Assembly (NCBI GenBank): GCA_018333955.1
Contig: JAGXSD010000003.1
Location: 1 to 45,045 of the forward strand
Reading direction: 5' to 3'
Length of the DNA: 45,045 bases
Source of the DNA: Erysipelotrichia bacterium
Lineage (GTDB): Bacteria > Bacillota_I > Bacilli_A > Erysipelotrichales > Erysipelotrichaceae
Shown here: positions 1,002-45,045 of the stretch, one piece after another
Layout of the letters: every line of letters starts with the position of its first letter
How positions within the stretch are numbered: position 1 is the stretch's first letter
Program-made: the position numbers and the translations under genes
Notes under the pieces: generated by a model
What the model saw: the letters and a program-made list of their open reading frames with translations, nothing else
Databases searched by the model: none
What the model was told of the DNA's origin: nothing

Positions 1002-1685
1002 ATGAAAGGTTTATTAGGACGTAAAGTCGGTATGACCCAAGTATTCACCGAGGATGGGGCACTTATTCCTGTCACGGTTGTAGAAGTTGTTCCTAACGTT
1101 GTCTTACAAAAGAAAACTTTAGAAAACGATGGATATGATGCAGTGCAATTAGGAATTGAAGATGTTAAGTTGCAAAGAGCAACTAAACCAGCCATCGGTC
1201 ATGCGAAAAAAGCAGGGTCCGCTCCCAAGAAATTCGTTCGTGAGATCGCGGGAAATGAATTATTAGGTTTAGAAGTTGGAAATGAAGTTAAAGCAGACTT
1301 ATTTGCTGCTGGCGACATCGTGGATGTACAAGGAACTTCAAAAGGTAAAGGATTTACTGGTGCGATTGTTCGTAACAATCAACGCATGGGTCCTGCATCT
1401 CATGGTTCTGGACATCACCGTGGTATTGGTTCATTAGCCACTATCGGTCGTAACAACGGTATTATCAATAAAGGTCGCATCATGGCGGGTCAAGAAGGTG
1501 GATATACTACGACTAATCGCAATCTTGAAGTGATTAAAGTTGATGCGGAAAATAACTACTTACTATTAAAAGGAAACGTACCTGGACCTAAGAAAGGGTA
1601 TGTTATCGTCAAAACGACCACGAAGCGTGTAAAACAAACTACACCTAAGACTTTAGTTAATCGTGGTGTAGGGCAAGGAGAATAA
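1002..1685 (+). CDS. rplC: 50S ribosomal protein L3
   Basis: Large-subunit assembly protein that reaches towards the peptidyl transferase centre. The family N-terminus [14 protein letters not shown] and the loop [15 protein letters not shown] are present. Two in-frame ATGs occur at 999 and 1002; the GGAGG at 992-996 is 2 nt from the first and 5 nt from the second, so 1002 (MKGLLGRK) is preferred. About 227 residues, slightly longer than usual because of a basic tail. rplD starts 2 nt after its stop. Confidence 0.96.
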
Positions 1686-1687
1686 TC

Positions 1688-2341
1688 ATGGTGAAAGTGA
1701 ATGTACACAATTTAGAAGGTGTAAGCGTTAAAGAAATTTCACTCGAAAGCGAAGTGTTTGGGATTACTCCTAACCGCCAAGTGCTATTCGATGCGGTTGT
1801 TCAACAACGTAACAGTGCACGTCAAGGAACTCATGACACTAAAAACCGCCGCGAAGTTGCTGGTGGTGGCCGTAAGCCTTGGAAACAAAAAGGAACAGGA
1901 CGTGCGCGTCAAGGTTCCATTCGTTCTCCACAATGGCGCGGTGGTGGAATCGTGTTTGGTCCAACTCCACGCTCTTATGGTGGAAAATTAAACAAAAAAG
2001 TAAGAAACTTAGCACTTCGCTCAGCATTGAGCACTAAAGTGTTAGATAACAGCTTAATGGTTGTAGAAAACTTAGTCTTAAGTGTTCCAAAAACTAAAGA
2101 GTTCATCAAAGTTATGGGTAACTTAAAACTTGAAAACAAAACATTGTTCGTAGTAAGCGGACATGAAGAGATCGACAATGCTTTCTTAGCACTTCGTAAC
2201 ATTCCTAATGTAATGTTACTATCAGTTGAAGGTCTTAACGTGTACGACATTCTTAATGCGGATACTCTTGTTTTCACAGAAGTGGCAGCGCTTGAAGCAG
2301 GCGTCTACTTCAATAAAAAAGAAGTGGAGGAGGTTGCATAA
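1688..2341 (+). CDS. rplD: 50S ribosomal protein L4
   Basis: Binds 23S rRNA and lines the peptide exit tunnel. In E. coli and other bacteria it is the autogenous regulator of the S10 operon, which makes it the first candidate ligand for the leader at 550-677. 217 residues; the conserved loop [19 protein letters not shown] and the following [13 protein letters not shown] are intact. Its TAA overlaps the rplW ATG (TAATG), implying translational coupling. Confidence 0.97.
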
Positions 2342-2628
2342 TGAGTGCACTAAACCCTAGAGACATTATCTTACGCCCAATTATCACTGAGAAATCAGTC
2401 AAGGCTCAAGAAGTCGATAACAAATACACTTTCGCAGTAGCGAAAGGTGCAAACAGAACACAAGTAAGACAAGCTGTCGAAGCTATCTTCAATGTGAAAG
2501 TAGAAAAAGTTAACATTGTGAATGTTCGCCCACGTCTAAAACGTGTTGGTAAATATTCTGGAACCACTAACGCAGTTCGTAAAGCGATCGTTAAGTTGGC
2601 TCAAGGTCAAACTATTAACTTATTCTAA
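2341..2628 (+). CDS. rplW: 50S ribosomal protein L23
   Basis: Located at the exit tunnel, where it docks trigger factor and SRP. 95 residues with the typical start RDIILRPIITEKSV and the VNIVNVRPRLKRVGKYSG region. The ATG overlaps the rplD stop. The 63-nt gap to rplB is the longest gap inside the rpsJ-rplO run and contains a small CGGAA/TTCCG inverted repeat at about 2643-2661. Confidence 0.97.
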   Translation: MSALNPRDIILRPIITEKSVKAQEVDNKYTFAVAKGANRTQVRQAVEAIFNVKVEKVNIVNVRPRLKRVGKYSGTTNAVRKAIVKLAQGQTINLF

Positions 2629-2691
2629 TATTTAAACAATATCGGAAGAACACGCTATTTCCGGAAAAGATGCGATAGGAGGAACTCACGT

Positions 2692-3525
2692 ATGGCGATT
2701 AAAGCCTACAAGCCAACGACCCCAGGTCGTCGTGGCATGACAACCGTGTCTAATGTTGAAATCACAACATCTAGACCAGAACGCTCACTTCTTGAACCTT
2801 TAAAGTCAAAAGGTGGACGTAACAATTTAGGACGCATTACTACCCGTCATCAAGGTGGTGGACATAAAAGAATGTATCGCGTCATCGACTTCAAACGTAA
2901 TAAAGATGGTATTCCAGCAACGGTAAAAACCATTGAGTACGATCCAAACAGATCAGCAAACATCGCGTTAGTTTCATACGCTGATGGTGAAAAACGTTAT
3001 ATCTTAGCTCCTAAAGGGCTAAAAGTTGGTACAGTCATCTTAAGTGGTGAAGGAGCTGACATTAAAGTAGGACATACTTTAGAACTTGGTAAAATGCCTG
3101 AAGGGACTGTTGTTCACAACGTTGAACTTAAGCCTGGAAAAGGTGGACAATTAGCTCGTTCTGCAGGTGTCTCTGCACAAATTCTTGGATCTGAAGATCG
3201 CTACGTTATCGTACGTCTTGGATCTGGAGAAGTTCGTAAGATTTTAAAACAATGCCGTGCAACCGTAGGGACTGTCGGTAATGAAGACCATAACTTAGTT
3301 AACATTGGTAAAGCGGGTCGTACTCGTTGGATGGGTATTCGTCCTACAGTGCGTGGATCTGCGATGAACCCAGTGGATCACCCACACGGTGGTGGTGAAG
3401 GACGTTCTCCAATTGGACGTGTTGCTCCATTAACACCTTGGGGTAAGAAAGCATTAGGATTGAAGACTCGCAAGAAGAAAAACGCTTCGAACAAATACAT
3501 CGTTCGTGGTCGTAAGGCGAAATAA
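2692..3525 (+). CDS. rplB: 50S ribosomal protein L2
   Basis: Subunit-bridging protein needed for association and peptidyl transfer. 277 residues, the usual length. The [17 protein letters not shown] start, [18 protein letters not shown], and the C-terminal [19 protein letters not shown] with the functionally important His are all present. AGGAGG precedes the ATG. Followed by rpsS after 19 nt. Confidence 0.98.
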
Positions 3526-3544
3526 GCGAAAGGAACCATAAAAC

Positions 3545-3817
3545 ATGAGTCGTAGTTTGAAAAAAGGCCCATTCGTAGACGACCACTTAATGAAAAAAGT
3601 GGAAGCCTTGAATGCTAAAGGTAAAAAAGAAGTAATTAAAACATGGTCTCGTCGTTCAACGATTTTCCCACAGTTTGTAGAGCACACTTTTGCGGTCTAC
3701 AATGGAAAAGAACACGTGCCAGTCTATGTCACTGAAGATATGGTTGGTCACAAGCTCGGTGAGTTTGTTCCAACACGTAAATACGGTGGACATGGCGACG
3801 ATAAGAAGGGTAAATAA
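3545..3817 (+). CDS. rpsS: 30S ribosomal protein S19
   Basis: Head protein contacting the A-site finger and S13. 90 residues starting [18 protein letters not shown], with the family core [23 protein letters not shown] and [16 protein letters not shown]. The site upstream (AAAGGAA) is weaker than in neighbouring genes. Canonical position between rplB and rplV. Confidence 0.98.
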
Positions 3818-35551: not shown

Positions 35552-36342
35552 GTGCAATCCTAAAAATAGAGCGACTCCATAAAGCTTTTGGAGGGTTGAT
35601 GGCGCTGAGTGATATTTCCTTTGATGTGCAAGAAGGAGAATTATGTGGGCTTATTGGACCTAATGGTGCAGGCAAAACGACATTATTTAATATAATTAGT
35701 GGAATCTATTCTCCAACGTCAGGAGCAATACAATTAACATCCGATAAGGTAAAGTTCATTAGTGGCTTAGCTCCATATAAAATCACAAAACTGGGTTTAG
35801 CACGCACATTTCAAAACATTCGTTTGTTTAAGGATATGAGTGTACTTGATAACATCAAAGTAGCGATGCATTCTCAAGTGAAGACTTCATTATTTGATGC
35901 ATTACTTAGAACTCCAAAATTCTTTAAAGAAGAGGCTAGAATTGAGGAGGAAGCTTTACTATTTCTTAAGAGTGTTGGATTAGATCATTTAGCACAATCC
36001 AAGGCTTCATCACTTCCATATGGGAAGCAACGTCAATTAGAGATTGCTCGTGCTTTAGCAACCAATGCGAAGATCCTACTCCTTGATGAACCTGCAGCGG
36101 GCATGAATCCACAAGAAACTGAATCTTTAGCTCAGTTTATCAAAACAATTCATCAAGAACGTGGATTAACATTACTTCTCATTGAACACGACATGTCACT
36201 TATCATGAGCATTACTTCTCGCATCATTGTATTGGATTATGGTAAAGTCATTGCGAATGATACCCCGGAAAATATAAAAAATAATCCTCGTGTCATCGAA
36301 GCATATTTAGGAGAGGAGCGTGAAGAAAATGTTGAAGATTGA
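35548..36342 (+). CDS. livG: Branched-chain amino-acid ABC transporter ATPase LivG
   Basis: 264 residues: Walker A GPNGAGKTTLFN, the RTFQNIRLFKDMSVLDN Q-loop typical of LivG, a degenerate signature LPYGKQRQLEIARAL (YG replacing the first GG, normal for LivG), Walker B ILLLDEPAAGMNP and the switch IEHDM. AAGGAGG precedes the start. Overlaps livF. Confidence 0.94.
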   Translation: MSAILKIERLHKAFGGLMALSDISFDVQEGELCGLIGPNGAGKTTLFNIISGIYSPTSGAIQLTSDKVKFISGLAPYKITKLGLARTFQNIRLFKDMSVLDNIKVAMHSQVKTSLFDALLRTPKFFKEEARIEEEALLFLKSVGLDHLAQSKASSLPYGKQRQLEIARALATNAKILLLDEPAAGMNPQETESLAQFIKTIHQERGLTLLLIEHDMSLIMSITSRIIVLDYGKVIANDTPENIKNNPRVIEAYLGEEREENVED

Positions 36343-37036
36343 AAATCTCCATGTCCATTATGGTGTCATACATGCTTTAAAAGGAGTATCACTTGAAGTT
36401 AATGAAGGTGAGATTGTTACACTCATCGGATCCAATGGAGCTGGAAAGAGTACACTTCTTAAAACAATTTCAAATTTGCTGAATGCAAGTTCGGGCTCTA
36501 TCATGTATTTAGGCCAGAATACTAAAACGATGGCAAGTAAACTTCTTCCTGCTCATGGTTTGGTGCAAGTTCCAGAGGGAAGAAAGATCTTTGCGGGATT
36601 AAGTGTCAAAGAGAACTTACTTATGGGGGCATACTTGAGAAAAGATAAAGTCGGGATAAAAGAAGACTTAGAAAAAATATATGCTCGCTTTCCAATTCTT
36701 AAGAAACGTCTAAATCAAGATGCATCAACTTTATCTGGGGGCGAACAACAGATGCTAGCGATGTCACGAGCTTTAATGGCAAGACCAAAGTTACTACTTC
36801 TCGATGAACCGTCCATGGGGTTAGCTCCACTCCTTGTGAAGGAGATATTTAGACTTATTGAAGAGATACATGCGCAAGGAACGACCATTCTGCTGGTTGA
36901 ACAAAACGCCAATCAAGCATTAAAGATTGCTCATAAAGCATATGTTTTAGAAACAGGAAGTATTGTATTATCAGGTAGTGGACAAGAACTACTATCAAGT
37001 GAGGATGTTAAGCGCATCTATTTAGGAGGTCATTGA
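36329..37036 (+). CDS. livF: Branched-chain amino-acid ABC transporter ATPase LivF
   Basis: 235 residues from ATG 36329, preferred to a GTG at 36320 that sits on the GGAG site. MLKIENLHVHYGVIHALKGV is the family start; Walker A GSNGAGKSTLLK, LVQVPEGRKIFAGLSV, signature LSGGEQQMLAMSRAL, Walker B LLLLDEPSMGLAP. Starts within livG, and its stop overlaps the next ATG. Confidence 0.94.
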   Translation: MLKIENLHVHYGVIHALKGVSLEVNEGEIVTLIGSNGAGKSTLLKTISNLLNASSGSIMYLGQNTKTMASKLLPAHGLVQVPEGRKIFAGLSVKENLLMGAYLRKDKVGIKEDLEKIYARFPILKKRLNQDASTLSGGEQQMLAMSRALMARPKLLLLDEPSMGLAPLLVKEIFRLIEEIHAQGTTILLVEQNANQALKIAHKAYVLETGSIVLSGSGQELLSSEDVKRIYLGGH

Positions 37037-37668
37037 TGTATGTAAGTGCGCATATGAGTCATCAGCTAGTGACAGTTTCTCCCAAAGAAACTATTTCTCT
37101 AGCGCTTGAGCTCATGAAGATTCATAAGATTCATCGTCTTCCCGTGGTGATTGATGGCATTTTAGTTGGATTAATTACTGAAGGAATGATTTCAAAGTAC
37201 ATGCCCTCAAGTGCTACTACTCTCGATATTTTCGAACTGAATTATTTATTGTCCAAAACAAAGGTGGATGACATTATGGTGACACGCGTCATCACAGCAT
37301 CACCAGACATGCTCTTAGAAAAAGCGGCGGATATCATGGCTAAAAAAGATATCGGTTGTTTACCAGTGGTGGATGAGCGTAAGCGAGTGTTAGGAATTTT
37401 GACCACGAATGATGTGCTCACTTCATTTGCGCATGTTATGGGACTTCATGATGAAGGAACCCGTGTTGTGCTTGAATTCGCCCTTGATCACATTGGTTTA
37501 ATGGCGGAAGTAAGCTCACTATTTTTTAAGCATGGCTTCAATATAACCCATATTATGGCTTTTCATGATGAATCAGTGCAAATGGTGATTAAGACTTCAT
37601 CACTTGATAAAGATAAGATTAAAGCGATGTGTGAAGGGGCCAAGTTTAAGGTCGCTTCTATTCAATAG
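37036..37668 (+). CDS. CBS-pair plus ACT domain protein (AcuB-like)
   Basis: 210 residues from ATG 37036, 5 nt after AGGAGGT and overlapping the livF stop. Two CBS repeats (about residues 5-60 and 78-133: THKIHRLPVV-like IHKIHRLPVVIDG and IGCLPVVDERKRVLGILTTNDVL) precede an ACT-type domain (FALDHIGLMAEVSSLFFKHGFNITHI). CBS pairs bind adenine nucleotides and ACT domains bind amino acids, so a soluble sensor of amino-acid or energy status for the transporter is a reasonable inference. The layout matches B. subtilis AcuB, whose role is itself unclear. Confidence 0.83.
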   Translation: MYVSAHMSHQLVTVSPKETISLALELMKIHKIHRLPVVIDGILVGLITEGMISKYMPSSATTLDIFELNYLLSKTKVDDIMVTRVITASPDMLLEKAADIMAKKDIGCLPVVDERKRVLGILTTNDVLTSFAHVMGLHDEGTRVVLEFALDHIGLMAEVSSLFFKHGFNITHIMAFHDESVQMVIKTSSLDKDKIKAMCEGAKFKVASIQ

Positions 37669-37674
37669 TATATA

Positions 37675-37702
37675 AGGTTACATCACGGTGTAACCTTTTT
37701 TT
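37675..37702 (+). terminator. Terminator of the liv operon
   Basis: AGGTTACA (37675-37682), TCACGG loop, TGTAACCT (37689-37696), T-run. Confidence 0.92.
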
Positions 37703-37770
37703 AACACTCAGTGTATAGGCAGTCATGGTATAATAGATTCACTGTAATGCCGATTTAGTGGGAGATGCTT

Positions 37771-38529
37771 ATGTATAAAACTTTAGTGAGTGATTATGAT
37801 GGAACATTGTATTTAGATAGCGTTGTTTATGAACGCGATATTTTAGCCATCGAACATTTTAAAGAACAAGGCCATCACTTTGGTATCGCAACTGGAAGAT
37901 CTCTTGGATCTATCTTAGAAGAGATTGCGAAATATAAGATTCCCTTTGATTTTGTGATCGCGAATAATGGTGCAATCTCCATTGATTCTAAAGGAAAGAT
38001 TCTTCATAAAACGATTGTTGACTTAAATGTTGTCCATGAAGTGTTATCATCACTTCAAGGGGACCACATTCAATTCTTTGGATTAAGTGATGGGATTAGT
38101 GTCGGGCTTCATGACAAACTTAACAAAAACGTTGATGTGCATGTGAATCAAATAAGTCTTGATGAGATTTTACTTACCCAGGAAATAGTTGGGATGTATA
38201 TAAAGTTTATTGATGATGTTTCAGCAACTAAACATGCGCAAGAGATTAATGAGAAGTATAAAGATAAACTTAAAGCCTATGCGTTTTATGAGTATAATGA
38301 TATTCTTTCTCCAGAAACTTCTAAGGCAAGTGGCATACTCTCGGTGGTGAAGGCATTAAAGCTTCATGAGATCATTCATACCGTCGGAGATTCATTCAAC
38401 GATATTCCTATGACACGAATGTTTAAAGGGTATGGTATTTCAACAGGGGAAGAGAAACATTTAAAAGAGGCTCATAAGGTGTGTAATAACGTAAGTGAAG
38501 TCATTGCAGATTTATTGAAAAGTGATTGA
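37771..38529 (+). CDS. Cof-type HAD phosphatase
   Basis: 252 residues from ATG 37771, 6 nt after GGGAG (an in-frame ATG at 37765 is too close to the site). HAD motif I VSDYDGTLYL, motif II in GIATGRS, a C2B cap in the middle and motif III-IV VGDSFNDIPM. Cof-type enzymes dephosphorylate sugar phosphates, flavin or pyridoxal precursors; no specific substrate is supported. A TATAAT preceded by ATGG lies about 40 nt upstream. The -35 of tRNA-Leu overlaps its stop. Confidence 0.87.
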   Translation: MYKTLVSDYDGTLYLDSVVYERDILAIEHFKEQGHHFGIATGRSLGSILEEIAKYKIPFDFVIANNGAISIDSKGKILHKTIVDLNVVHEVLSSLQGDHIQFFGLSDGISVGLHDKLNKNVDVHVNQISLDEILLTQEIVGMYIKFIDDVSATKHAQEINEKYKDKLKAYAFYEYNDILSPETSKASGILSVVKALKLHEIIHTVGDSFNDIPMTRMFKGYGISTGEEKHLKEAHKVCNNVSEVIADLLKSD

Positions 38530-38553
38530 AATCGATTTTGATTGTGCTATAAT
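38526..38553 (+). promoter_or_regulatory. tRNA-Leu promoter
   Basis: TTGAAA at 38526-38531 (overlapping the HAD gene stop), 16-nt spacer, TATAAT at 38548-38553. Confidence 0.8.
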
Positions 38554-38565
38554 AATAGGGCACAC

Positions 38566-38650
38566 GCGGATGTGGCGAAATTGGCAGACGCACTAGACTT
38601 AGGATCTAGCGCCTTACGGCATGGGGGTTCGAGTCCCTTCATCCGCACCA
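38566..38650 (+). tRNA. tRNA-Leu (anticodon TAG), integration site of the mobile element
   Basis: 85 nt with the long variable arm of class II tRNAs (GCGCCTTACGGC region). Acceptor GCGGATG/CATCCGC, anticodon stem CTAGA/TCTAG with loop CTTAGGA, CCA encoded. An integrase gene starts 222 nt downstream, so the tRNA 3' end is the likely attachment site; the gene itself is intact. Confidence 0.95.
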
Positions 38651-38661
38651 TGATTTAAATC

Positions 38662-38685
38662 AGTGTCTATAAAGGCACTTTTTTT
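38662..38685 (+). terminator. Terminator after tRNA-Leu
   Basis: AGTGTC (38662-38667), TATAAA loop, GGCACT (38674-38679) with one G-U pair, then T-run. Confidence 0.75.
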
Positions 38686-38700
38686 ATGCTTGTAGAGTTC

Positions 38701-38768
38701 AACCGGGTAAAACCGGGTAAATGTATAGAAATCTTTTGAAATCTATGCAAGGGATTTAAAATCTTTTG
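38701..38768 (+). repeat. Paired direct repeats in the att region (candidate integrase arm sites)
   Basis: AACCGGGTAA occurs twice head-to-tail (38701-38710 and 38711-38720), and AAATCTTTTG occurs twice 30 bp apart (38729-38738 and 38759-38768), about three helical turns. Lying between the tRNA 3' end and the integrase gene, they suit arm-type binding sites for the integrase N-terminal domain. The rest of 38769-38871 shows no other feature. Confidence 0.55.
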
Positions 38769-38871
38769 GAACGCTCTACCTTATTTATAGGTTTCTCATA
38801 TATCTATTCTCGCTTTAAGATTAAGGTAGGAATAAGTAGGTTGATGGGAAATGCAAGAAAGGAATGAAAAT

Positions 38872-40011
38872 ATGCCAGCAACAAAAGATGAAAGCAAAAA
38901 TGGAACGTGGAGATATCAGAAATTAATTACTCATCCTATTACCGGAGAAAGAGTCTTTTTGAGAAAACGAGGCTTTAAATCAAAACGAGAAGCAGAGTTG
39001 GCGGAAGCCATGGTCGTGTCTGAGATTGTAGGACTTAATGATGCGGGTGCGCTGCCATTTAAATTTGTACTCGATGATTTTCTTAGTTATAAAAGTAAGA
39101 GAGTTAATGCCCGCTCATTTGAAAAAATCTCACGATTGATTAATGGGTATATACGAGAGCATGTCGAAAAATATGATATGAGATTGTATTCTGCATCTGA
39201 TGCACGACGATTCTACGATCATTTGATTGACGAACAACGCAGTAATAACTTCAAAAATCAAATAATTGAATTATTAAAATCAGTTTTTAGATTTGCGGAA
39301 ACAATGCATGGACTTAAAAGTAATCCAGTAAGAAACATGGAAAAGTTCAAAACTTATAAAGCTAAAAAGAATTTCCAAGTTTATTCCATTGAAGAATTTT
39401 TTAAATTTATTAATACTTTCAGTGAAGAAAATGATTACGAGTTCTCGATGAAGTTGTTTTTTTCAGTCTTGTTTTGGTCTGGATTGAGAAGAGGGGAATG
39501 TAAAGGCCTTAAATGGAATGATATTAACTACTCAACCTTTGAAATTAGAGTTGATGAGCAGTTTATTGATAAAGATCCAAATCTAGGTCGAATTTGCACG
39601 AGAGTCAAAACAGAAAATGCGCTCCGTAGTGTGCTTGTGGATCGACGTTTAATGAGTATGTTTAAACACTTACATAATTATCGAAAGCAACATCCAGAAT
39701 ACAATGATAATGAATTCATATTTCTAAGACAAGATCGAACAATCCCGTTCGCTGATAATACAATTGATAAGAGAAATGCTGCGCATGCTAAAAAAGCAGG
39801 ATTAAGAAAGATTAGAATCCATGATTTTAGACATTCATTTGCCACAATGAATTATGCTCTAGGTGCAGACGCTAAAACAATTAGTTCTCAACTTGGCCAT
39901 AGTAGTTTGACAATTACACTGGATATTTATATCAATATGTTTGCGGACAAAAATCATGCGAGAGTCAGTCTAATTGAGGATGCGAAAAACAAGTATTTAG
40001 ATAATAAGTGA
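38872..40011 (+). CDS. int: Tyrosine recombinase / integrase
   Basis: 379 residues from ATG 38872 (MPATKDESKNGTWRYQ, an opening common in ICE integrases; AAAGGA 9 nt upstream; ATG 38851 is the alternative). Domains: an arm-binding N-terminal domain (about 1-45), SAM-like core-binding domain (about 65-160) and catalytic domain. Catalytic residues fit the family: Arg206 in GLRRGE, Lys246, His317 and Arg320 in HDFRHSF, His343 in LGHSS, Tyr353 in LDIYINMF. It should insert and excise the element at tRNA-Leu. No excisionase is recognized. Confidence 0.93.
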   Translation: MPATKDESKNGTWRYQKLITHPITGERVFLRKRGFKSKREAELAEAMVVSEIVGLNDAGALPFKFVLDDFLSYKSKRVNARSFEKISRLINGYIREHVEKYDMRLYSASDARRFYDHLIDEQRSNNFKNQIIELLKSVFRFAETMHGLKSNPVRNMEKFKTYKAKKNFQVYSIEEFFKFINTFSEENDYEFSMKLFFSVLFWSGLRRGECKGLKWNDINYSTFEIRVDEQFIDKDPNLGRICTRVKTENALRSVLVDRRLMSMFKHLHNYRKQHPEYNDNEFIFLRQDRTIPFADNTIDKRNAAHAKKAGLRKIRIHDFRHSFATMNYALGADAKTISSQLGHSSLTITLDIYINMFADKNHARVSLIEDAKNKYLDNK

Positions 40012-40016
40012 CTTTC

Positions 40017-40754
40017 TCATTTTTTGGCTATACGTCGTTTTGCTGAGATAGTATACCTCTCTTTAGTCAATAATATTGAAAAATCAATTGAATCCTCAGT
40101 ATGACTTGATATCTTCTGGCGAACTTCAACAACTCGACCAATGAAGTGAATAGACTTTGGATTCTCCTCTTCAATGTCCATTAAATTTTTGCTAGCTAGA
40201 TTATAGAAAAGAGGAATATTTTTTTGAAGTATCACTGAAAAAAGGTTTGTTTTTCCATCCACATTGATTACAACAATATCATTTTCTGTGAAACTATTTG
40301 TAACCTTTATAATCAAGTTTCTATCCTTTAAAAAAAGTGGAGAAAATTGATCGTCGACTAGTTTGATACCAAAGAAATCTGAATTATCATTCATCCAAAA
40401 ACGTGGTATATCTTCAAAATCAACGTGTTTATTTGTATCAAGTGGCAACGCTACATCCAATTTATAGACAAAAATTCTCTTGAATTTACTTGACTCAAAA
40501 AGATAGTTTAGCTTTTCTTGAAAAGTATCGAATTTAAAATCTTGAATATTTTGAGCATCATTAAGGTTAAAGTTTAATAGTTGATTCAGATCCACACCAT
40601 AGTACACCGCAAGTTGTTTAATTGTGGCAATGTTAGGCTCTCTTGTGCCACGTTCGTAGTTACTTAATGTTTGTTTTGATATACCTAGATAGTCAGCGAC
40701 TTCTTGCAATGATTTATCTTTTGAAATTCTTAACTTTTGCAAATTTGTCTTCAT
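40017..40754 (-). CDS. CI-like XRE repressor with degenerate S24 domain
   Basis: 245 residues from the ATG at 40754 (AGAGGT upstream). N-terminal HTH (SLQEVADYLGISKQTLSNYERGTREP, about residues 15-40). The C-terminal part aligns by eye with the LexA/CI S24 fold (FFGIKLVDDQFSPLF, ENDIVVINVDG, IGRVVEVRQKI). The catalytic Ser position (GDSM in the family) is Gln136 in DDQF, and the Lys position is Ile175, so self-cleavage is not expected. Probably the element's master repressor; it faces away from the operon at 40830. Convergent with int, 5 nt apart. Confidence 0.82.
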   Translation of the reverse strand: MKTNLQKLRISKDKSLQEVADYLGISKQTLSNYERGTREPNIATIKQLAVYYGVDLNQLLNFNLNDAQNIQDFKFDTFQEKLNYLFESSKFKRIFVYKLDVALPLDTNKHVDFEDIPRFWMNDNSDFFGIKLVDDQFSPLFLKDRNLIIKVTNSFTENDIVVINVDGKTNLFSVILQKNIPLFYNLASKNLMDIEEENPKSIHFIGRVVEVRQKISSHTEDSIDFSILLTKERYTISAKRRIAKK

Positions 40755-40772
40755 TATGTACCTCTTTTTATA

Positions 40773-40801
40773 ATTATAAATTATAAACAAATATTTGACA
40801 A
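40773..40801 (-). promoter_or_regulatory. Repressor promoter
   Basis: Minus strand: TTGTCA (40801-40796), 17-nt spacer, TATAAT (40778-40773). The -35 shares five of six positions with the -35 of the rightward promoter. Repeats TTATAAACAAA (about 40781) and TTATAACAAAG (about 40804) flank it and may be operators. Confidence 0.8.
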
Positions 40802-40823
40802 CTTTATAACAAAGACATATAAT
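40795..40823 (+). promoter_or_regulatory. Consensus promoter of the rightward early operon
   Basis: TTGACA at 40795-40800, 17-nt spacer, TATAAT at 40818-40823: a perfect consensus. The expected transcription start, about 7 nt downstream, coincides with the GTG at 40830. Confidence 0.88.
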
Positions 40824-40829
40824 GTATAT

Positions 40830-41378
40830 GTGAAAACCAAAAAAAACAAAATACAAAATGTTGACAAAAAGACATCATATACGGTCTTCTATGCTGCTAG
40901 GATAATTGAAGGTTTTGATAGGGACACTGTGAGTTCAGATACTGGTATGTCAATAAAAAGAATTTCTGATTTAGAAAAAGATGTTGGCAATCCACCAGGA
41001 ATTGATGAAATTATTAACTTAGAAGATTACTATAAAAATAATGTGATAATGGAATATTTCATTGAATTAATTACCAAGGGAGGTCGTTACATACGGATGC
41101 CAAGACAAGCGAAGGAAACATCGAATTTAGAAAAGTACATTGCATTAGAACAGCCAACAATGGGAAATCACCATATTATGACAGTGCTTCAAATTTCTAT
41201 GGGTAGCGCAATTGTTCTTAGACAGAATCTTGAAGAAAAAGCGCAACAAGATGGTCTTGTGCTTTTGCCAAACGCAGTGATTCAAACTGTTATATTTGAA
41301 AAATACGTCGGTATTTCAAAATCTTTTTTTGAGGAATTCCCTGAAGTTATTGAATACAAGAAAATGAGAGGCAAGTAA
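40830..41378 (+). CDS. HTH-like protein of the mobile element, probably leaderless
   Basis: About 182 residues if started at GTG 40830; an ATG farther upstream (40737) would lie before the promoter and overlap the repressor gene, so it is rejected. The region ARIIEGFDRDTVSSDTGMSIKRISDLEKDVGNPP (about residues 22-55) looks like a divergent XRE helix-turn-helix. The C-terminal half (HHIMTVLQISMGSAIVLRQNLEEKAQ) is not recognized. By position it could be Cro-like or an activator of element genes. No Shine-Dalgarno sequence is possible in the predicted message. The following gene starts 1 nt after its stop. Confidence 0.6.
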   Translation: MKTKKNKIQNVDKKTSYTVFYAARIIEGFDRDTVSSDTGMSIKRISDLEKDVGNPPGIDEIINLEDYYKNNVIMEYFIELITKGGRYIRMPRQAKETSNLEKYIALEQPTMGNHHIMTVLQISMGSAIVLRQNLEEKAQQDGLVLLPNAVIQTVIFEKYVGISKSFFEEFPEVIEYKKMRGK

Positions 41379-41379
41379 T

Positions 41380-41859
41380 ATGAACAATTATACTTTAATA
41401 CCTGAAGAGTTCTTTCTTAATGTAGATGTATATGGGATTTTGATGTGCGATTCAAGAGTGTTATATGTTCTTAGAAATCGATGGAGTAATGAAAATACTC
41501 AAGATAATGTATTAACTTTTATATTAGCGCATCTTCATCCTGAAATTTTTTATGATATTCCTCATATGACTTATGATGAAATGTTTGAAAATGTAATGCG
41601 TAGTAGAGAAATAAGTTCTCAGTTTAAGAAAGTCTTTGAGTCAATACTTGAATTTAATCATATTGATTTAAATGAAATTGCATTGGTGGAAAATGTTGAA
41701 GAAAAGACTTATCTCAATTTAGCTTTGAAATTAACATGTCCACAATTATTCTTTGATTACGATCTTCAACATTATGTGGGTGAACTTTTGAGAATCGAAA
41801 ATGAGCATTACATCTTATATCAACTAGGTTACGAGAAATATCATCAACATGAAAGATGA
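41380..41859 (+). CDS. Uncharacterized protein of the early operon
   Basis: 159 residues, acidic, not recognized. No signal or membrane segment. It contains helix-rich stretches such as DEMFENVMRSREISSQFKKVFESI and a C-terminal LLRIENEHYILYQLGYEKY. It follows the HTH-like gene by 1 nt, so the two are co-translated. Base composition is AT-richer than the core genes, like the rest of the element. Confidence 0.6.
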   Translation: MNNYTLIPEEFFLNVDVYGILMCDSRVLYVLRNRWSNENTQDNVLTFILAHLHPEIFYDIPHMTYDEMFENVMRSREISSQFKKVFESILEFNHIDLNEIALVENVEEKTYLNLALKLTCPQLFFDYDLQHYVGELLRIENEHYILYQLGYEKYHQHER

Positions 41860-42049
41860 ATAGACGATTTAAATCAGTCTAAAATTTATGCAAAAGTACC
41901 TAATTGATATGTTAATGATGGATTAATCCTGATGGTCCAGATCTAAAACACCAGTTTTCGGAAAAATTAGAAACGATGGTGAGGTAGTTTGAGTGCTCAT
42001 CGTCGTATTGAAAATGAGATTATCAAAAATTGAAAGGAACACCCTTGTA

Positions 42050-42991
42050 ATGACGAACAAAGCCGTTAAGATGAGCGAGATTTTGTTAAACAAACTTTCG
42101 CTCTACAAAAAAGATGAAAAGATTGTTGTGGATATTAATAGCATTTCGCATCATGGGATTAACTCGAAGATATACGATTACGGGTTGGATAAGAAAAGAA
42201 TGCTTGAACTTGCAGAATCGATTGAACGAGATGGTTTACAACAACAACTCGTGATTAAGAAAGACCCCGAAAAATCTGGTCACTATATTTGTTTGATAGG
42301 TCATAGGCGATTGGATGCTTTGAAATATTTAGTCCATGAAAAAGGATTTTTGGGATATGCAAGGATTGAATGTATAGTCAAAGAGTTTAAAGATGAGGAT
42401 CAGGAAATTATGTACATGATTGCTTCAAATGCAACGCAGAGACAGTTAACTGATGCAGAACGCCTTCGCCAATTCAAGTACTACAAATCTAATATTGATG
42501 ATATTAGAGAATCTCTAGGAGAAGAGGTGGTTGGAGTTAGAACGATTGAGATAATACAACAGCAGACAGGGATGGGATTAGCGATAATTCGCAAACTGAA
42601 TATTGCGGATAAGATTCTATCGGGAAAGCTTGAGACAATGTTTTTAGAGCAATTGATTGACTTAAAAGATGTTGATGTAATTAATAGTCTAAGTAAAAAT
42701 CAACTCCATGAGTTTAGGACGTTCATTGAAGAGAGAAAAGACATTAGCGTTAAGGATGTCAAAGACAAATTAAAGCAATTAAAAAGAGTTGTTGAGAATA
42801 AATCTAAAAGACACAAGAAAACAACCTTTGATAAGAAGCGCGAAGGAGAAGCTTTAGTCAAATTGGTAAATCGCTCAGTATATGCGTACTTAAGGGGAAT
42901 GGGTGTAGATAACTCTCAATACAAAGACGAAGTAAATAAGATAATTACTTCATTGATTGAGTTTACTAATCAAATACAGAACACGAAGTAA
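42050..42991 (+). CDS. ParB-like nuclease-domain protein
   Basis: About 313 residues from ATG 42050; other in-frame starts exist and the ribosome site (AAAGGA, 11 nt away) is not ideal. The ParB N-terminal fold shows as LAESIERDGLQQQLVIKK and LIGHRRLDALKYL (the G-x-R-R box that binds CTP in ParB), then the ASNATQRQLTDAERLRQFKYY block. A second HTH (TIEIIQQQTGMGLAIIRKLNIAD) follows, then a basic coiled-coil-like tail. No ParA is adjacent. Could serve in partition or regulation of the element; 41860-42049 upstream shows nothing certain. Confidence 0.75.
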   Translation: MTNKAVKMSEILLNKLSLYKKDEKIVVDINSISHHGINSKIYDYGLDKKRMLELAESIERDGLQQQLVIKKDPEKSGHYICLIGHRRLDALKYLVHEKGFLGYARIECIVKEFKDEDQEIMYMIASNATQRQLTDAERLRQFKYYKSNIDDIRESLGEEVVGVRTIEIIQQQTGMGLAIIRKLNIADKILSGKLETMFLEQLIDLKDVDVINSLSKNQLHEFRTFIEERKDISVKDVKDKLKQLKRVVENKSKRHKKTTFDKKREGEALVKLVNRSVYAYLRGMGVDNSQYKDEVNKIITSLIEFTNQIQNTK

Positions 42992-43167
42992 TCTTAAGTG
43001 GAATATGTTGTATCATTTGGAACAATAGTTTTACTGAGCTGTATGACAAGGGAGGTCCTGAACACATATTTACAGGTGTCGATAAATAAAAGCGAAAGTG
43101 TTTTTTCATTAAACTCGTGAAAATGAGGTGCCATTTTTTGTAGTTAACCGCACAAAACATAGTAAGT
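42992..43167. other. Spacer without supported gene
   Basis: AT-rich. A short open frame ending at 43089 (...ELYDKGGPEHIFTGVDK) has no start codon and may be a gene remnant. An AAGGGAGG occurs at 43048-43055 without a matching start. Confidence 0.4.
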
Positions 43168-43392
43168 TTGATCTTGATTTTTCTAGAAATTGGATTTGAT
43201 TACAATAATATCGTACTTCTAAAAGAAGATGAAAAGGGAGATATTAGTGTTGAATATGGGGCTCTTGAATATGAAGGTAAAGGGATTAACGGAACTACAG
43301 TAAATATTCTAAATGATGTAGCAAATATATTAGATGGAGGAGTTGAAACTATAAGGAGAAGATGGAAACGTTATGACAAAAAGAACAATTAG
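43168..43392 (+). CDS. Small hypothetical protein, start uncertain
   Basis: At most about 74 residues from a TTG with no ribosome site; the frame is open from about 43044. The conserved-looking part is VLLKEDEKGDISVEYGALEYEG followed by DVANILDGGVETIRRRWKRY. Not recognized. It may be the 3' remnant of a longer gene. Overlaps the next gene by 20 nt, which has a GGAGA site inside it. Confidence 0.35.
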   Translation: MILIFLEIGFDYNNIVLLKEDEKGDISVEYGALEYEGKGINGTTVNILNDVANILDGGVETIRRRWKRYDKKNN

Positions 43393-43666
43393 AATTTGTT
43401 TAAGTGTTGAAGGGAACGTTGTTCTAAAAAACGAAAATGGAAAAGAAATCGTGATATTGATTACCCAGAAACAACTAGAAGCAAAGGATGTATACGATTT
43501 ACTAGATTACACAAAAGGAGATAAGTATCATCTAGAAGGTGAAGAAAAATATTCGGATGAAGTAATTAGTGGACCAAAGAACGATAAATATAGACTTTAC
43601 AATTTTGCATACGAGTATATGGAAGAGTTGTTTAAGAAATTAAATGAATTTCAAATTGAAAGTTGA
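43373..43666 (+). CDS. Small hypothetical protein
   Basis: 97 residues, acidic, starting MTKRTIRICLSVEGNVVLKN; GGAGA lies about 12 nt upstream. Beta-rich N-terminus (RICLSV, EIVILITQKQ) and a helical end (YEYMEELFKKLNEF). No recognized family. Probably a co-translated partner of the preceding small frame. Confidence 0.5.
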   Translation: MTKRTIRICLSVEGNVVLKNENGKEIVILITQKQLEAKDVYDLLDYTKGDKYHLEGEEKYSDEVISGPKNDKYRLYNFAYEYMEELFKKLNEFQIES

Positions 43667-43684
43667 AAGTGCAATTTAAACGGG

Positions 43685-43810
43685 TTGATTAATCAAAAAT
43701 TGGTAGGCGGATTTTGATAAATCACTTGGCGGGTTTTGATAAATCAGTTGATTCTTCGCTATTTTGGTAGGCGGATTTTGATAAATCACTATCGTCAATT
43801 TGATAAATCC
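43685..43810 (+). repeat. TTGATAAATC repeat array with 22-bp phasing
   Basis: The core TTGATAAATC starts at 43714, 43736, 43778 and 43800 (steps of 22, 42 and 22), preceded by a degenerate copy TTGATTAATC at 43685. Copies 1 and 3 share a longer unit: TGGTAGGCGGATTTTG followed by ATAAATCAC (25 bp, 43701-43725 and 43765-43789). Copy 2 has GGCGGG before the core. Possible identities: an IS21-type transposon end, which carries several internal repeats, or iterons / a centromere-like site for the ParB-like protein. Confidence 0.75.
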
Positions 43811-43884
43811 CTTAATATTTTTAGTGTTTTATTAGTAAAAACACATTTACTAAAAGTACTGTGAAGACATGTTTTCAATGTTAA

Positions 43885-44616
43885 ACTCTACTAAGTAAGA
43901 CACTAAAATCAAATACACTAAATATAAGTACGAATCCTCCATTTAAGACAGATTTCAGTAGTTCTATCGAAAATCTAAAAACCGATAAGTATAATCGTTT
44001 CTTTGCTGGTCTTCCTAATATTCCTAAAAAAGATAAGAATAGCATGGCAATTTATGAGACCTTCCTTCAGCATGCTATAGCATCTTTATCACCAAGAGGT
44101 AAAGCAGCAATAGTTGTTCCAACGGGATTCGTTTCTGCAAGCAATGGGATTCCACTTAAGATTAGAAAACACCTCGTGGATAATAACTGGCTAAGAGGGG
44201 TTATCCATATGCCATCCAACATTTTCGCAACGACTGGGACATCGGTATCAATTATCTTTATAGACAAAACTAAGTCTGATGATAAAGTCATGCTAATGGA
44301 TGCATCAAATCTTGGGACAAAGGTTTCACTTGAAGATGGTCAAAGAACGGTCCTAAGTAATGATGAAAAAACGAAGATTACAAGTTTCTTTAAAGGTAGA
44401 ATTCAAGAACCTGAGTTCTCTGTTTTGGTCGAAAAAAAGCAAGTTGAAGATAATGGTTATTCTGTTCAAGCTGGTCAATATGTCGAAATCAATCTTAATG
44501 AACTTGGATATAACGTTGATGAAAGAATTAAGGAACTTAGGAAAGAAATATCTATACTTCTAAGCAGTGAAATTGAAAAATCTTTAGAACTAATTAATTT
44601 GATTGGTGATAAATAA
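43885..44616 (+). pseudogene. hsdM: Type I restriction-modification methyltransferase (hsdM), 5'-truncated
   Basis: The frame is open from 43885 but recognizable homology starts near 43921 with STNPPFKTDF: the catalytic NPPF motif IV of N6-adenine methyltransferases. It continues through FAGLPNIPKKD, HAIASLSPRGKAAIVVPTGF and LRGVIHMPSNIFATTGTSVSIIF to a normal end. The N-terminal helical domain and SAM-binding motif I are missing, and there is no start codon until ATG 44044, past the NPPF motif. So the gene is broken, with the break next to the repeat array at 43685-43810. Confidence 0.85.
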
Positions 44617-44660
44617 TGTCAAAATTAACTTTAAAGGATGTTTGTCTTAGAAAAGATTGA
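44616..44660 (+). pseudogene. hsdS: hsdS stub
   Basis: ATG 44616 overlaps the hsdM stop (TAATG), the usual hsdM-hsdS coupling, and encodes MSKLTLKDVCLRKD before a TGA. This resembles the start of a type I specificity subunit. No recognition domains follow in any frame. Confidence 0.5.
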
Positions 44661-44796
44661 TGAATATTATAAACTTGTTATCAATTACTCTTATGAAAAA
44701 AATATTCAAAGCCACGTCGATGGATTTAGTAAGATTATATTATTTCCTTTTGTTCAGCACATTTCAGCTCACTTAGAAGATTTGTTGGGAGGGGGA
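44638..44796 (+). pseudogene. Unrecognized reading frame cut by the right IS
   Basis: From ATG 44638 a frame encodes VLEKIDEYYKLVINYSYEKN and later FSKIILFPFVQHISAHLEDL, then enters the IS end at about 44797. It overlaps the hsdS stub in another frame and has no convincing ribosome site. It could be the rest of a disrupted gene; the family is not recognized. Confidence 0.3.
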
Positions 44797-45045
44797 TGCG
44801 GACAAAAACTTGGACACTAATAACCTAACTTTCTTCGGTTTTCATTAATGCTGCACCCAAATTTCTGCTTGATTCTGTCTTCATTATACCAGTTCAAATA
44901 GTCATTAAGATAGTTGATAAAATCAGCGGTGTCCATGTTTCTAAAGTCTTTATGGTAAAAACATTCATTCTTTATACGTCCAAACACTCCTTCACAAGCC
45001 GCATTATCGCCCGTACATCCTTTTTTCGACATAGAACGTACTAAG
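44797..45045 (-). mobile_element. IS3-type insertion sequence, 3' part
   Basis: The terminal repeat begins TGCGGAC at 44797 and ends GACACT at 44818. It encloses the transposase end and runs off the right edge. Inserted after a GGGAGGGGG tract. Confidence 0.7.
44817..45045 (-). CDS. IS3-family transposase OrfB, C-terminal part
   Basis: The minus-strand frame stays open at the right edge (LVRSMSKKGCTGDNAACEG) and ends at TAG 44819-44817. SMSKKGCTGDNAACEGVFGR is the DDE-region signature of IS3/IS150 integrases, where the catalytic Glu lies in the ACEGVFGR segment. DYLNWYNEDRIKQKFG (YN..R) then follows. The catalytic Asp residues would be beyond the window. Confidence 0.88.
   Translation of the reverse strand, partial: LVRSMSKKGCTGDNAACEGVFGRIKNECFYHKDFRNMDTADFINYLNDYLNWYNEDRIKQKFGCSINENRRKLGY

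What the first reader, a model, noticed from the sequence alone, without database searches (positions are those of the whole stretch)
43685..43810. TTGATAAATC array with helical phasing next to a ParB-like gene
Four exact cores spaced 22, 42 and 22 bp, plus one degenerate copy, all on the same face of the helix. Two explanations compete: (a) a stranded IS21-type end, which would also explain why hsdM is truncated just beyond it; (b) iterons or a centromere bound by the ParB-like protein 0.7 kb upstream. The phasing is direct observation.
Basis: partly seen in the sequence, partly recalled or inferred. Interest (0 to 1): 0.6.

Follow-up and report, generated by a model that had tools for sequence, protein, structure and literature searches.

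The report
Orphan IS21-like transposon-end repeat array
A real cluster of four evenly spaced short DNA repeats sits between two broken defence genes and looks most like the leftover end of a jumping gene, not a working DNA-segregation site for the nearby ParB-like protein; it is mostly ordinary genomic debris.

Summary
The array is real: exact TTGATAAATC at 43714, 43736, 43778 and 43800 (spacing 22, 42, 22); 0 of 200 shuffles give such a cluster. The true unit is longer, GGCGGRTTTTGATAAATC in three copies, with a 27-bp exact duplication 64 bp apart. The fifth 'degenerate copy' (43685) is 29 bp away and out of phase. The ParB-centromere reading loses support: between the ParB-like gene and the array lies a breakpoint, then the last ~69 codons of a trlF defence gene and its small partner gene; no ParA was found in the last 9 kb; distant ParB-like relatives, most beside ParA, have no such array. 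The IS21-end reading fits the anatomy: IS21 elements of related genomes carry end repeats with 22-24, 42-47 and 63-70 bp periods, starting a few bases inside a TG tip, as at 43702 here. But no istA/istB, partner end or second copy was found, and the unit matches no examined IS21 end convincingly. HsdM homology resumes ~120 bp past the last repeat, at about residue 310. Best verdict: stranded left end of an unsampled IS21-like element, left by deletion in a decayed defence island. Low interest.

The parts
43702..43723 (+). Candidate tip TGGTA plus repeat unit 1 (GGCGGATTTTGATAAATC, core at 43714)
   Evidence: TG tip by analogy with complete IS21 elements (inference)
43728..43745 (+). Repeat unit 2 (GGCGGGTTTTGATAAATC, core at 43736)
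43770..43787 (+). Repeat unit 3 (GGCGGATTTTGATAAATC, core at 43778), inside a 27-bp exact duplicate (43764-43790) of 43700-43726
43792..43809 (+). Repeat unit 4, diverged on its 5' side (TCGTCAATTTGATAAATC, core at 43800)
43685..43694 (+).
43810..43930 (.). About 120 bp of non-coding DNA of unknown origin between the last repeat and the start of hsdM homology; possible element leader
   Evidence: origin is inference
43183..43389 (+). C-terminal remnant (about 69 codons) of a trlF-type gene; 5' part missing
   Evidence: tblastn with TrlF of L154/L155/L156; weak NCBIfam TrlF hit ending at the model's C-terminus
43373..43666 (+). 97-aa gene, homologue of the small gene directly downstream of trlF in three relatives
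43930..44616 (+). 3' remnant of type I methyltransferase gene hsdM (from about residue 310 of 553)
41993..42991 (+). ParB-like protein; judged not to be functionally linked to the array
   Evidence: context

Best explanation
The array is most likely the surviving left (istA-side) end of an IS21-like transposon, or a close mechanistic relative with a MuA/TnsB-type transposase. In life each ~22-bp unit would be one transposase binding site; two or more sites on one helix face let the transposase tetramer wrap and synapse the end next to a 5'-TG tip, here probably TGGTA|GGCGG at 43702. The element landed in a defence island between a trlF module and a type I restriction module. Deletion or rearrangement later removed its genes, its other end and the first ~310 codons of hsdM. 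Shown: the repeats, their spacing, the flanking remnants, and the same periods in IS21 ends of relatives. Inferred: identity of the binding protein, the tip, the orientation and the deletion.
For: IS21 elements of related genomes carry end repeats with 22-24 bp period, several also 42-47 and 63-70 bp. L095 has 22/42/63 with a vaguely similar unit, CGGTTTGATAAAACG. Elements with a candidate target duplication (L090, L091, L094) start with TG, and in L094 the first unit follows within a few bases. A published IS21 transposase structure describes end repeats 23 bp apart, two of which are needed for integration (PMC10122671). The array lies in foreign DNA between two truncated genes, trlF 3' part and hsdM 3' part, and three trlF relatives have no array at that place (by eye). 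The contig ends in an IS3-like transposase fragment, so the region is rearranged.
Against: No istA/istB beside it; the genome's only clear IS21 is a decayed copy on contig C35 whose ends lack the motif. No second array or partner end in the genome at up to 2 mismatches per 18-bp unit. No match in the other class genomes at up to 3 mismatches or in plasmids beyond chance. The unit scores no better than chance in nearly all IS21 left ends examined (L082 p 0.015, uncorrected among 16). A ~22-bp phased period is also typical of plasmid iterons and Tn7-type ends (own knowledge).
Confidence: 0.55

Rival explanations
1. A partition site (centromere) bound by the ParB-like protein encoded at 41993-42991: phased direct repeats nucleate ParB binding to segregate or stabilise a plasmid-like element.
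For: Array unique in the genome, 0.7 kb downstream of a ParB-like gene, in a region with an integrase beside tRNA-Leu and a phage-type repressor.
Against: No ParA-type ATPase motif in the last 9 kb of the contig, and no comparable array within 1.5 kb of seven distant ParB-like relatives, five of which have a ParA-type motif nearby. A breakpoint and a trlF remnant with its partner gene lie between gene and array.
Confidence: 0.12
2. The end of another transposon with a MuA/TnsB-class transposase (Tn7-like, Tn552/Tn5053-like), which also carry ~20-22 bp phased transposase sites.
For: Same anatomy; 22-bp TnsB sites are known for Tn7 (own knowledge; the Tn7/Mu parallel is drawn in PMC10122671).
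Against: Integrase-core (rve) hits in this genome are the IS21 relic plus eight others that look like IS3/IS30-type genes or fragments, not classified in detail; no tns or tni genes were seen near the array.
Confidence: 0.13
3. Iterons of a lost plasmid or phage replication origin, bound by a Rep protein.
For: 22-bp phased direct repeats are typical of iterons (own knowledge).
Against: No Rep-type family among the neighbouring proteins scanned; flanking DNA is defence-gene debris.
Confidence: 0.1
4. A regulatory operator array or other cis element of the trlF or hsd genes.
For: It lies between these genes.
Against: Not seen downstream of trlF and its partner in three relatives, and both adjacent modules are broken; no Rfam family reaches its gathering score.
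Confidence: 0.06

Closest known systems
IS21-family transposon ends (L1/L2, R1/R2 direct repeats; e.g. IS5376, and L089-L095 here)
   Same: Direct repeats on one strand with 22-24 bp period, also 42-47 and 63-70; TG tip a few bases before the first unit in L094 (PMC10122671)
   Different: No istA/istB, no inverted partner end, single copy, unit sequence unmatched; four units with a 42-bp gap
Tn7-type ends with 22-bp TnsB sites
   Same: Phased ~22-bp transposase sites with gaps (own knowledge)
   Different: No tns genes seen; sequence not shown to match
Plasmid iterons / ParB or ParR centromere arrays
   Same: Phased short direct repeats near a ParB-like gene
   Different: No ParA or Rep found nearby, breakpoint between gene and array, not seen beside related ParB-like genes

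Membership tests
IS21-family element end | Two or more direct repeats at 22-24 bp period | tested here: met
IS21-family element end | istA and istB within the element | tested here: not met
   none beside the array; only a relic on C35
IS21-family element end | Inverted repeats at a second end | tested here: not met
   no second copy in the genome at up to 2 mismatches; the assembly is in 64 contigs and may be incomplete
IS21-family element end | 5'-TG tip abutting the first repeat | tested here: inconclusive
   TGGTA|GGCGG at 43702 fits the pattern of L094, but TG is common by chance and recurs at 43766
IS21-family element end | Target-site duplication of 4-8 bp | not testable with these tools
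   the other end is lost
IS21-family element end | Unit sequence shared with known IS21 ends | tested here: not met
   PWM scan of 16 IS21 loci, no convincing match; no IS21 genes near the intergenic GTDB pattern hits checked
ParABS centromere | ParA partner gene nearby | tested here: not met
   no ParA-type Walker motif in 36001-45045
ParABS centromere | Site conserved beside the parB-like gene in relatives | tested here: not met
   seven distant ParB-like loci, no such array; these relatives are only 23-32% identical
ParABS centromere | Binding by the ParB-like protein | not testable with these tools
   needs a binding assay
Iteron origin | Linked Rep initiator gene | tested here: not met
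   no Rep family among the neighbouring proteins scanned

The most novel reading that the evidence does not exclude
Solitary phased arrays with a TTTGATAAATC-type core, here and in Bacteroidales loci L040 and L032, are not transposon debris but a recurrent free-standing protein-binding element (a partition, regulatory or target site) recognised by a protein not yet identified.
Probability: 0.07. Interest if true: 0.5.

Novelty: new member of a known kind. Interest (0 to 1): 0.17.

Why it matters
As an orphan transposon end it mainly documents how a defence island decays: mobile DNA inserts between trlF and a restriction module and deletion leaves 3' remnants on both sides. It warns against reading phased repeats near a ParB-like gene as a centromere. 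Only if such arrays proved to be free-standing binding sites would it matter more widely.

Tried and rejected
Search of 85k genomes for exact repeat pairs: 22 hits, most apparently inside genes by their sequence context and so probably chance; of seven that looked intergenic, an ORF listing of the fetched 3.4-8 kb showed nothing recognisable as IS21 genes. IS21 search in those seven genomes: a strong istB in G503, whose 3' flank lacks the motif, and a weak hit in G506. Viral contigs: three exact-pair hits and three single-unit hits, none showing the array anatomy; two further array patterns found nothing. Plasmid and phage searches with the array: chance hits only. ParB-like protein in viral contigs: none; in plasmids and phages only distant hits under 30% identity. 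Rfam: nothing at gathering score. Integrase arm-site idea: the DNA between tRNA-Leu and the integrase has other short repeats, not this motif. The right-end orientation was judged less likely because no CA tip follows the last repeat for about 35 bp.

Full report
Observation. The four exact TTGATAAATC cores at 43714, 43736, 43778 and 43800 are real, with spacing 22, 42 and 22 bp. No 10-mer occurred four times within 130 bp in any of 200 dinucleotide-preserving shuffles. The unit is longer than stated: GGCGG[AG]TTTTGATAAATC in three copies, a fourth diverged on its 5' side, and a 27-bp exact repeat at 43700 and 43764. All four cores lie within about a fifth of a turn of one helix face. The proposed fifth copy at 43685 is 29 bp away, palindromic and out of phase.

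Uniqueness. The array occurs once in the 1.8-Mb, 64-contig genome; apart from its own three units, no 18-bp unit elsewhere comes within two mismatches. It was found in no other genome of 98 relatives or of 395 class genomes at up to three mismatches. BLAST against plasmids and phages gave chance-level hits only.

Surroundings. From left to right: tRNA-Leu at 38566-38650, a tyrosine integrase with an arm-binding domain, a phage-type repressor on the other strand, two small genes, and a ParB-like gene at 41993-42991. Next comes a fragment at 43183-43389 matching the last ~69 codons of TrlF at about 51% identity to two relatives and 37% to a third. The 97-aa gene at 43373-43666 is the homologue of the small gene directly after trlF in G408, G065 and G069. 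Then the array, about 120 bp of unassigned DNA, and an hsdM remnant whose homology starts near 43930 at residue ~310 of 553. The contig ends in an IS3-like transposase fragment (identified by eye). Thus the array lies between two truncated defence genes, and a breakpoint near 43180 separates it from the ParB-like gene.

Centromere reading. The last 9 kb of the window hold no ParA-type Walker motif. Seven distant ParB-like loci of other genomes (23-32% identical over the matched part), five with a ParA-type motif nearby, show no comparable array. No closer relative was found in viral contigs, plasmids or phages. With the breakpoint, this makes the reading unlikely though not excluded.

Transposon-end reading. 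The own genome holds one clear IS21, a decayed copy on C35, and its ends lack the motif. From related genomes I collected IS21 loci. Most of them have end repeats with period 22-24 bp on at least one side, several also 42-47 and 63-70. The L095 element has 22/42/63 and a long run of CGGTTTGATAAAACG-like units before istA (copies counted by eye). Three elements with candidate target duplications begin with TG; in L094 the first unit follows three bases later. The window offers the same layout, TGGTA|GGCGG at 43702. IS21 ends are described as direct repeats separated by 23 bp, two being required for integration (PMC10122671). However, the unit itself matches none of the examined IS21 ends convincingly, and no istA/istB or second end was found. 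Membership in IS21 is therefore not established; the claim is that it is built like, and probably derives from, such an end.

Similar arrays elsewhere. Exact-pair matches in other genomes look mostly like chance hits inside genes, but L040 (Bacteroidaceae) and L032 (Prevotellaceae) show intergenic runs of three or more phased units (counted by eye, some diverged) with no recognisable IS21 genes in the fetched DNA. No istB reached E 1e-10 in the L032 genome; the one strong istB of the L040 genome has a different 3' flank. They may be orphan ends too, or the basis of the low-probability novel reading.

Verdict. A stranded left end of an unsampled IS21-like element is best supported (0.55), with a Tn7-like or other related end next. 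The hsdM truncation is plausibly part of the same insertion-and-deletion history, but the 120-bp gap means the array itself does not abut the break.

Noticed in passing
43183-43666: C-terminal remnant of trlF with an intact homologue of the small gene that follows trlF in three related genomes, suggesting a conserved two-gene trlF module.
   Followed up: partly
L095 870-1180: An IS21-type element with an unusually long run of ~21-22 bp repeats (CGGTTTGATAAAACG-like, over ten by eye) upstream of istA.
   Followed up: partly
L040 300-380 and L032 1369-1435: Intergenic phased arrays with TTTGATAAATC-type cores in Bacteroidales MAGs, without recognisable IS21 genes in the fetched DNA.
   Followed up: partly
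38566-40011: tRNA-Leu directly followed by a tyrosine integrase with an arm-binding domain: probable integration site of a mobile element; a 13-bp repeat GATTTAAATCAGT at 38652 and 41866 could be its ends or chance.
   Followed up: no
44806-45045: Contig ends in an IS3-like transposase fragment; short rve fragments at other contig ends (C43, C55, C63, C16, C35) suggest the assembly breaks at such copies.
   Followed up: no
L016 (G000 C35) 1276-3571: Decayed IS21 copy with interrupted istA and istB, the only clear IS21 found in this genome.
   Followed up: partly
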